Source of the DNA: Chitinophagales bacterium
Lineage (GTDB): Bacteria; Bacteroidota; Bacteroidia; Chitinophagales; UBA10324
Assembly: GCA_025056305.1 (NCBI GenBank)
Contig: JANWWJ010000007.1
Location: 1-64,000, forward strand
Reading direction: 5' to 3'
Length of the DNA: 64,000 bases
Position numbers and translations under genes: made by a program. Below are positions 1-1,310 of this stretch, one piece after another. Within the stretch, counting starts at the first letter, position 1, and each line of letters begins with the position of its first letter. The notes beneath the pieces are model-generated. The model was not told where the DNA came from. It did not search any database and saw only the letters and a program-made list of their open reading frames with translations.

Positions 1-584
1 TTTATAAGGTTTTTGCTGCGCGTTTTATGCAACAATATCAGCTTTCCGGCATGCTCGATACCCGCACAAGCGACGTGACGCGTGCCTGTTTTATCAGCCA
101 CGATCCGCAAGCCCTTTTTCGGGCCGAGGCAGAACCCATAAAGTTGGAGGAATACATCAACCCGAATGATTACGATGCATCGGCTGCCGCGATTCATCAG
201 GCTGAAGCAGAACTGAACAAGCATCAGCCCCCTGCTGCTCCCGACCCTCTGAGTAAGGAAGCATTAGAAGAAATCATAAAACGTCTTGGAGGGCGGGTTA
301 AGGTGTTGCGCCAACGAACCATATACCTACCCCCTGAAGTTGATGCTATTTTGCCTCGAATTGAAGAAGAGCTTAAAAAATATGGTATTGCCGTAGTTCA
401 TACCGAACCTATCAATTACGGTAGAAAGATCAAAGTGCAAAACGGCATTCGCTGGGCTGAGCTAAATATTTTTTATGGCAAACGGGGCTATTCAATAGTG
501 AGAACTCCGAAAACGGGAAGCGACGAACAGTTGGCTGAAGTTGCAGCCGTTTTGGTCTGGCAAATTTTGAGCGGGGGATCATGA
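1..584 (+). CDS. C-terminal part (truncated by window edge) of a VirE-N/BT4734-like or primase-polymerase-like protein; possible CRISPR-associated primase-polymerase
   Basis: Frame stays open to base 3 (YKVFAARF-MQQYQLSG...). The stretch 'DVTRACFISHDPQALFRAEAEPI' resembles the 'RxCFxSYDPxxYxNPxA' signature of Bacteroidota VirE-N/primase proteins. The stop overlaps the downstream cas2 start (ATGA). Confidence 0.5.
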   Translation, partial: YKVFAARFMQQYQLSGMLDTRTSDVTRACFISHDPQALFRAEAEPIKLEEYINPNDYDASAAAIHQAEAELNKHQPPAAPDPLSKEALEEIIKRLGGRVKVLRQRTIYLPPEVDAILPRIEEELKKYGIAVVHTEPINYGRKIKVQNGIRWAELNIFYGKRGYSIVRTPKTGSDEQLAEVAAVLVWQILSGGS

Positions 585-1051
585 GCCGGCCCAAAAGAAG
601 GAATTATGACTTACGCACCCGACTGGAGCTGTTGCGACGGGCAGGATTGACAGGAGCGTCTGAAGCATCAGAGCAGGATAAGCTGCTGCCGCTAGAAAAA
701 AGAATAAAAAAAATACTAAATATTCTTAGAGATAAGCCCAAAAAGCCGCTCGCCATGTTGTACCTCATCATGTACGACATCGAAAATGACAAGGTACGTA
801 ATCGAATTTCCCGCTATTTAGAACGCAAAGGATGCGTGCGGATTCAAAAATCGGTATTTGTGGCTCGAACCGAACCTAAAGTATTTGAAGAAATTCATGA
901 AACCCTGCGCGAGGTGCAGTCGTTTTACGACAATCGCGACAGTATAATTCTAGTGCCAGCCAACAGCAGTGATTTACGAAGTATGAAAATTATTGGCAAA
1001 GAGCTATATTTAGAAGCGATTTTGGATAAACCAAATTCATTGTTTTTTTAA
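581..1051 (+). CDS. cas2: CRISPR-associated Cas2-like protein with ~58-aa basic N-terminal extension
   Basis: Core 'MLYLIMYDIENDKVRNRISRYLERKGCVRIQKSVFVARTEP...SIILVP' matches the Cas2 ferredoxin fold pattern (YDI-D/N strand 1, RIQKSVFVA strand 2, IILVP strand). ATGA overlap with the upstream ORF. Confidence 0.8.
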   Translation: MSRPKRRNYDLRTRLELLRRAGLTGASEASEQDKLLPLEKRIKKILNILRDKPKKPLAMLYLIMYDIENDKVRNRISRYLERKGCVRIQKSVFVARTEPKVFEEIHETLREVQSFYDNRDSIILVPANSSDLRSMKIIGKELYLEAILDKPNSLFF

Positions 1052-1157
1052 GCCTGAATTTCATGAATAACTGCCCTTTGGATAGACATAAAACAGTGAT
1101 AATTAGGCATTTGCAAAAAATAGCTCAAAGACCATCATCCATTAAAACAAGGATTAA

Positions 1158-1310
1158 GTGAAGCAGCCTTTCCTGTTTGTTCCAAAGGGAAACTGGCGGG
1201 TAGAATTGCTTTCAACAAAACATAATGTCATTAAATCAGTAAACTTTTATAGGCAGGGTTATTGGTGGCCAATATCAAAATGGGAATTTATTTTTCTGCA
1301 TGCGCAATAA
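1158..1310 (+). CDS. Possible small ORF (50 aa, GTG start): VKQPFLFVPKGNWRVELLSTKHNVIKSVNFYRQGYWWPISKWEFIFLHAQ
   Basis: Open frame read by hand; AAGGA a few nt upstream of the GTG; not in the supplied ORF track (short, non-ATG). Could be a gene remnant. Confidence 0.25.
   Translation: MKQPFLFVPKGNWRVELLSTKHNVIKSVNFYRQGYWWPISKWEFIFLHAQ

What the first reader, a model, noticed from the sequence alone, without database searches (positions are those of the whole stretch)
1..1051. Possible CRISPR adaptation module (or a Cas2 system lacking an array) at the window edge: primase/VirE-N-like ORF translationally coupled to Cas2
A reading frame open to the left edge ends in a segment resembling Bacteroidota VirE-N/BT4734 or primase-polymerase proteins (DVTRACFISHDPQALFRAEAEPI). 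A separate C-terminal domain follows (RWAELNIFYGKRGYSIVRTPKTGSDEQLAEVAAVLVWQIL). Its TGA overlaps the ATG of a clear Cas2 (ATGA), implying co-expression. CRISPR-associated primase-polymerases linked to Cas1/Cas2 are known, mostly near type III systems, but the fusion and domain layout here are not ones I can name. No array or cas1 is in the window, so upstream sequence decides between a CAPP-type adaptation operon and a CRISPR-independent Cas2/primase system.
Basis: partly seen in the sequence, partly recalled or inferred. Interest (0 to 1): 0.8.

Follow-up and report, generated by a model that had tools for sequence, protein, structure and literature searches.

The report
Tail of known CAPP_B–Cas2 CRISPR operon

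Summary
ORF 3-584 runs off the contig's first base and is the C-terminal 57% of a CRISPR-associated primase-polymerase of class B (CAPP_B; NCBIfam NF040562, E=1.7e-55). It overlaps by ATGA a cas2 (581-1051). Of 26 homologous loci, 23 carry cas1 directly before CAPP_B (two of the other three are cut by contig ends), 25 have cas2, and many have a RecD-like helicase, type III effector genes and a CRISPR array just after cas2. This is the layout published by Zabrady et al. 2021 (PMC8211822), so the 'unnamed fusion' has a name. Its altered 3' end resembles the last repeat of related arrays. It is the only copy found in the 2.41-Mb assembly, which also lacks cas1, Cas10 and RAMP genes; these may lie beyond the contig break. 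Best reading: a truncated view of a known CAPP_B type III adaptation module whose array has collapsed to one repeat. New member of a known kind; low interest.

The parts
3..584 (+). C-terminal part (193 aa) of a CAPP_B primase-polymerase gene, 5' end cut off by the contig edge: the end of the AEP catalytic domain (DxxTxDxTRACFxSxD block), a linker, and the small C-terminal domain
   Evidence: NF040562 E=1.7e-55, model 141-332/335; conserved columns kept in the 26-sequence alignment; frame open, no stops
581..1051 (+). cas2 with an N-terminal extension of about 58 aa; start codon overlaps the stop of CAPP_B (ATGA)
   Evidence: PF09827 8.2e-14 and TIGR01573 1e-13 over residues 59-155; predicted fold matches Cas2 structures; extension present in all 24 relatives aligned
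1052..1123 (+). 72-nt leader-like spacer between cas2 and the repeat
   Evidence: first repeat lies 79-154 nt after the cas2 stop in 13 homologous loci and 238-322 nt in three more
1124..1160 (+). lone 37-nt CRISPR repeat CTCAAAGACCATCATCCATTAAAACAAGGATTAAGTG, 3' end changed as in terminal repeats
   Evidence: 45.0 bits with a weight matrix made only from 13 homologue repeats (their own scores 39.8-53.0; next best in window 6.5; best of 10 shuffles 11.7); only copy in the assembly at up to 3 mismatches in its 20-base core

Best explanation
This is the tail of a known kind of operon, cas1-CAPP_B-cas2, the spacer-acquisition module of a Bacteroidota type III CRISPR-Cas system, cut by the contig edge. 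Most likely mechanism: Cas1-Cas2 captures and integrates prespacers, while CAPP_B, bound to them, primes and extends DNA to make double-stranded prespacers and/or fills the gaps left after integration. Shown here: gene identity, coupling to cas2, operon order in relatives, repeat family, lone repeat. Taken from the literature: DbCAPP and MpCAPP priming/polymerase activity, and Db CAPP/Cas1/Cas2/RecD interactions. Inferred: that cas1 and effector genes lie (or lay) beyond the break, and that the array shrank to a single repeat by recombination between its first and last repeats.
For: NF040562 hit; all 26 aligned proteins including the window's match only that family. 23 of 26 homologous loci have cas1 directly before CAPP_B, and 25 have cas2. 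Type III effectors (Csm1/Cas10, RAMPs, Card1, Csm6-like) and a RecD2-like helicase sit nearby. Arrays sharing the ...CCATTA.AACAAGGATTAAGAC repeat follow cas2. The lone window repeat lies where the array starts in relatives and has a terminal-type 3' end. Published CAPP_B description, including DbCAPP between Cas1 and Cas2 and its yeast two-hybrid contacts. The predicted CAPP_B model resembles the LigD polymerase domain, an AEP fold.
Against: The catalytic DxD half of CAPP_B and cas1 are not in the assembly. No Cas10 or RAMP gene was found in a 99.5% complete genome, so a functional type III system in this organism is not shown; the locus could be a decaying remnant.
Confidence: 0.93

Rival explanations
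1. The locus is a decaying remnant of the same kind of system: the array was lost and the effector genes and possibly cas1 have been deleted, so CAPP_B and cas2 are left over. (This competes only over the present state of the locus, not over the family.)
For: Only one repeat in the whole assembly; no cas1, Cas10 or RAMP genes. A related locus, L033, has a csm gene set and an array but a shortened CAPP_B and no cas1 nearby.
Against: CAPP_B (193 aa present) and Cas2 are open and keep family-invariant residues, so there is no sign of decay in what is visible. The contig break falls exactly where cas1 and effectors would be.
Confidence: 0.3
2. The array is present in the organism but was lost in assembly: the assembler joined the first repeat directly to the terminal flank.
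For: In relatives, contigs often end at the first repeat (L008, L010, L004), showing that these arrays break assemblies. First and last repeat would share about 35 nt here.
Against: A collapse needs an assembly word shorter than about 35 nt (inference). No other contig carries the repeat core at up to 3 mismatches.
Confidence: 0.3
3. A CRISPR-independent Cas2/primase system.
For: No cas1 or effector in this assembly.
Against: Nearly every homologous locus has cas1 and most have repeats, and the window itself has a repeat of that family.
Confidence: 0.02

Closest known systems
CAPP_B (DbCAPP, Dysgonamonadaceae bacterium WP_101486965.1; NCBIfam NF040562), Zabrady et al. 2021, PMC8211822
   Same: Sequence family, position directly before cas2 (between cas1 and cas2 in relatives), AEP domain of VirE-N type plus a smaller C-terminal part, RecD-like helicase nearby in relatives, Bacteroidota, type III context in relatives
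   Different: In this assembly only the C-terminal 57% is present, cas1 and effectors are not seen, and the array is a single repeat
CAPP_A (MpCAPP, Marinitoga piezophila)
   Same: Primase-polymerase tied to Cas1-Cas2
   Different: Different sequence class with TPR/RT/helicase fusions; the window protein matches class B
VirE-N/BT4734 proteins not linked to cas genes (e.g. L034, L035)
   Same: Related N-terminal AEP domain
   Different: Long proteins (about 930-1020 aa) with no cas1 or cas2 homologue in the fetched flanks; matched at only 28-31% identity over the AEP part

Membership tests
CAPP_B primase-polymerase | Sequence match to NF040562 | tested here: met
   E=1.7e-55 over model 141-332; 188.6 bits against a full-length cut-off of 200, protein truncated
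CAPP_B primase-polymerase | AEP DxD catalytic motif | not testable with these tools
   Lies left of the contig edge in this genome; nearly invariant in the full-length relatives (D93, D95 of L008)
CAPP_B primase-polymerase | Gene lies between cas1 and cas2 | tested here: inconclusive
   cas2 directly downstream with ATGA overlap; upstream side missing; cas1 present in 23 of 26 homologous loci
CAPP_B primase-polymerase | Polymerase/primase activity and Cas1-Cas2 binding | not testable with these tools
   Shown for Db and Mp proteins in PMC8211822
Cas2 | Cas2 ferredoxin-like core with conserved YD at the first strand | tested here: met
   PF09827 and TIGR01573; Y65 D66 invariant in 25 sequences; best fold matches are Cas2 structures
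Functional type III CRISPR-Cas system in this genome | Cas10 and RAMP effector genes | tested here: not met
   No PF22335 or PF03787 match in the assembly; may be on an unassembled piece
CRISPR array | At least two repeats separated by spacers | tested here: not met
   One repeat only

The most novel reading that the evidence does not exclude
The organism really carries an intact CAPP_B adaptation module next to a leader and a single repeat with no spacer, i.e. a natural 'empty' CRISPR locus able to acquire a first spacer.
Probability: 0.15. Interest if true: 0.35.

Novelty: new member of a known kind. Interest (0 to 1): 0.15.

Why it matters
It adds one more Bacteroidota lineage to a published family and shows a case where the array seems reduced to one repeat. 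If the module is intact, it would be a natural substrate for testing first-spacer acquisition with a dedicated polymerase. It does not change current understanding.

Tried and rejected
Extending left: impossible, the contig starts at window base 1 and its first 400 bases have no meaningful match on another contig. Searching the assembly for the missing CAPP_B half, cas1, Cas10 and RAMPs: nothing. Same-genus genome G001: no CAPP_B, and its matching contig starts at the equivalent of window 1881, so it is uninformative. Sequence search of CAPP_B against solved structures: no credible relative. The scan of viral contigs failed on the server side and was not repeated. A new domain fusion: rejected, the layout is the published CAPP_B one. 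A literature search for single-repeat arrays gave only one paper, on another subtype, not read.

Full report
What is there. The window begins at the first base of an 87,471-bp contig of a 2.41-Mb, 44-contig assembly (99.46% complete). ORF 3-584 is open to that edge; its TGA (582-584) overlaps the ATG (581-583) of ORF 581-1051. The second ORF is Cas2. The first is not just VirE-N-like: it matches NCBIfam NF040562, 'CRISPR-associated primase-polymerase type B', at E=1.7e-55 over model positions 141-332 of 335, so it is the C-terminal 57% of a CAPP_B protein cut by the contig end.

Relatives. A family search of 60 related genomes and a scan of one genome for each of 85,462 species gave 26 CAPP_B loci (L008-L033; L003 and L004 are the same places as L008 and L030). 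In 23 of them cas1 lies directly before CAPP_B; of the other three, L018 and L032 are cut by the contig end there, and L033 has a shortened CAPP_B and no cas1 nearby. cas2 follows in 25, at most with a TPR-type gene in between (L016); L013 ends before it. Nearby lie a RecD2-like helicase (14 loci, one of them with it downstream of the array) and type III genes: Csm1/Cas10 at 1.3e-168 in L025, a TIGR03986 RAMP, Card1 and Csm6-like proteins. All 26 aligned proteins, the window's included, match NF040562 and no other NCBIfam family.

The missed repeat. In relatives an array with a 37-nt repeat ending in AACAAGGATTAAGAC or a close variant starts 79-322 nt after cas2 in 16 loci, and after an intervening gene or stretch in four. 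A weight matrix made from 13 homologue repeats, without the window, scores window 1124-1160 (CTCAAAGACCATCATCCATTAAAACAAGGATTAAGTG) at 45.0 bits, inside the range of true repeats (39.8-53.0); the next best site in 64 kb scores 6.5 and the best of ten dinucleotide-model random sequences 11.7. It begins 72 nt after the cas2 stop. Its 20-base core occurs once in the assembly, at up to 3 mismatches. Its last two bases differ from the family end; terminal repeats of related arrays diverge at the same end (L017, L024, L027, L031, L033). The simplest reading is recombination between the first and last repeat of an array, leaving leader, one repeat and the downstream flank; an assembly collapse cannot be excluded.

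Comparison with the literature. Zabrady et al. 2021 (PMC8211822) defined CAPP_B as a class with a VirE-N-type AEP catalytic domain, predominantly in type III operons and almost confined to Bacteroidetes; studied DbCAPP, whose gene lies between cas1 and cas2; described its domains (about 1-220 AEP, 220-337 a diverse smaller C-terminus); and showed by yeast two-hybrid that DbCAPP contacts Cas1 and Cas2 and that Cas1 contacts a RecD-like helicase. The paper also reports DNA polymerase, primase and strand-displacement activity of CAPPs and proposes prespacer synthesis and gap filling. These activities are carried over to the window protein by homology only.

Structure. A model of the full-length relative L008 CAPP_B (mean pLDDT 91.6) has its best match to the LigD polymerase domain (E=2e-4), with other AEPs lower down. 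The C-terminal domain (about residues 262-348: helix, four strands, helix) is the likely source of a weak resemblance to the E. coli RnlA toxin over about 80 residues (probability 0.96-0.99, E about 0.04-0.1; the aligned residues were not shown); RnlA has been reported to hold a TBP-like domain (PMC7221094). A nucleic-acid-binding role for the CAPP_B C-terminus is therefore a suggestion, not a result. The window Cas2 model (mean pLDDT 71.7) matches Cas2 structures over its core; the N-terminal extension has two predicted helices and is present in all relatives aligned, more variable than the core.

Limits. cas1, the CAPP_B N-terminus with its DxD motif, Cas10 and RAMP genes are not in the assembly. 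Whether they lie beyond the break or are gone cannot be decided here. The conclusion that this is a CAPP_B-Cas2 adaptation module is firm; that it works in this organism is not shown.

Verdict. A real but ordinary finding: a new member of a known kind, with one small extra, a lone CRISPR repeat at the expected place.

Noticed in passing
window 1124-1160: Lone CRISPR repeat 72 nt after cas2, the only copy found in the assembly, with a terminal-type 3' end.
   Followed up: yes
L013, L015, L016, L018, L019, L020, L021, L026, L029, L031, L032: A TPR protein of 410-493 aa (two representatives match DUF7017, one of them also S1CSD-TOTE-2) sits next to the cas1-CAPP_B-cas2 genes, in L013 and L016 directly after CAPP_B; it was not mentioned in the text read.
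   Followed up: partly
L033:10124-11055: Locus with a csm gene set and an array of at least 17 repeats but only a 154-aa CAPP_B piece and no cas1 nearby: an apparently decayed adaptation module.
   Followed up: no
L008:2717-2977 (CAPP_B residues 262-348; counterpart in the window about 320-570): C-terminal domain of CAPP_B; the model weakly resembles the RnlA toxin fold (possibly its TBP-like domain).
   Followed up: partly
window 581-755: Cas2 of this family has an N-terminal extension of about 58 aa with two predicted helices, present in all relatives aligned.
   Followed up: partly
L019:16311-16570: Hybrid repeats at the far end of the L019 array: the normal 5' half followed by an inserted hairpin-like CCCACAACAATTTTGTTGGGGCGCG before AAACAAGGATTAAGAC.
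   Followed up: no
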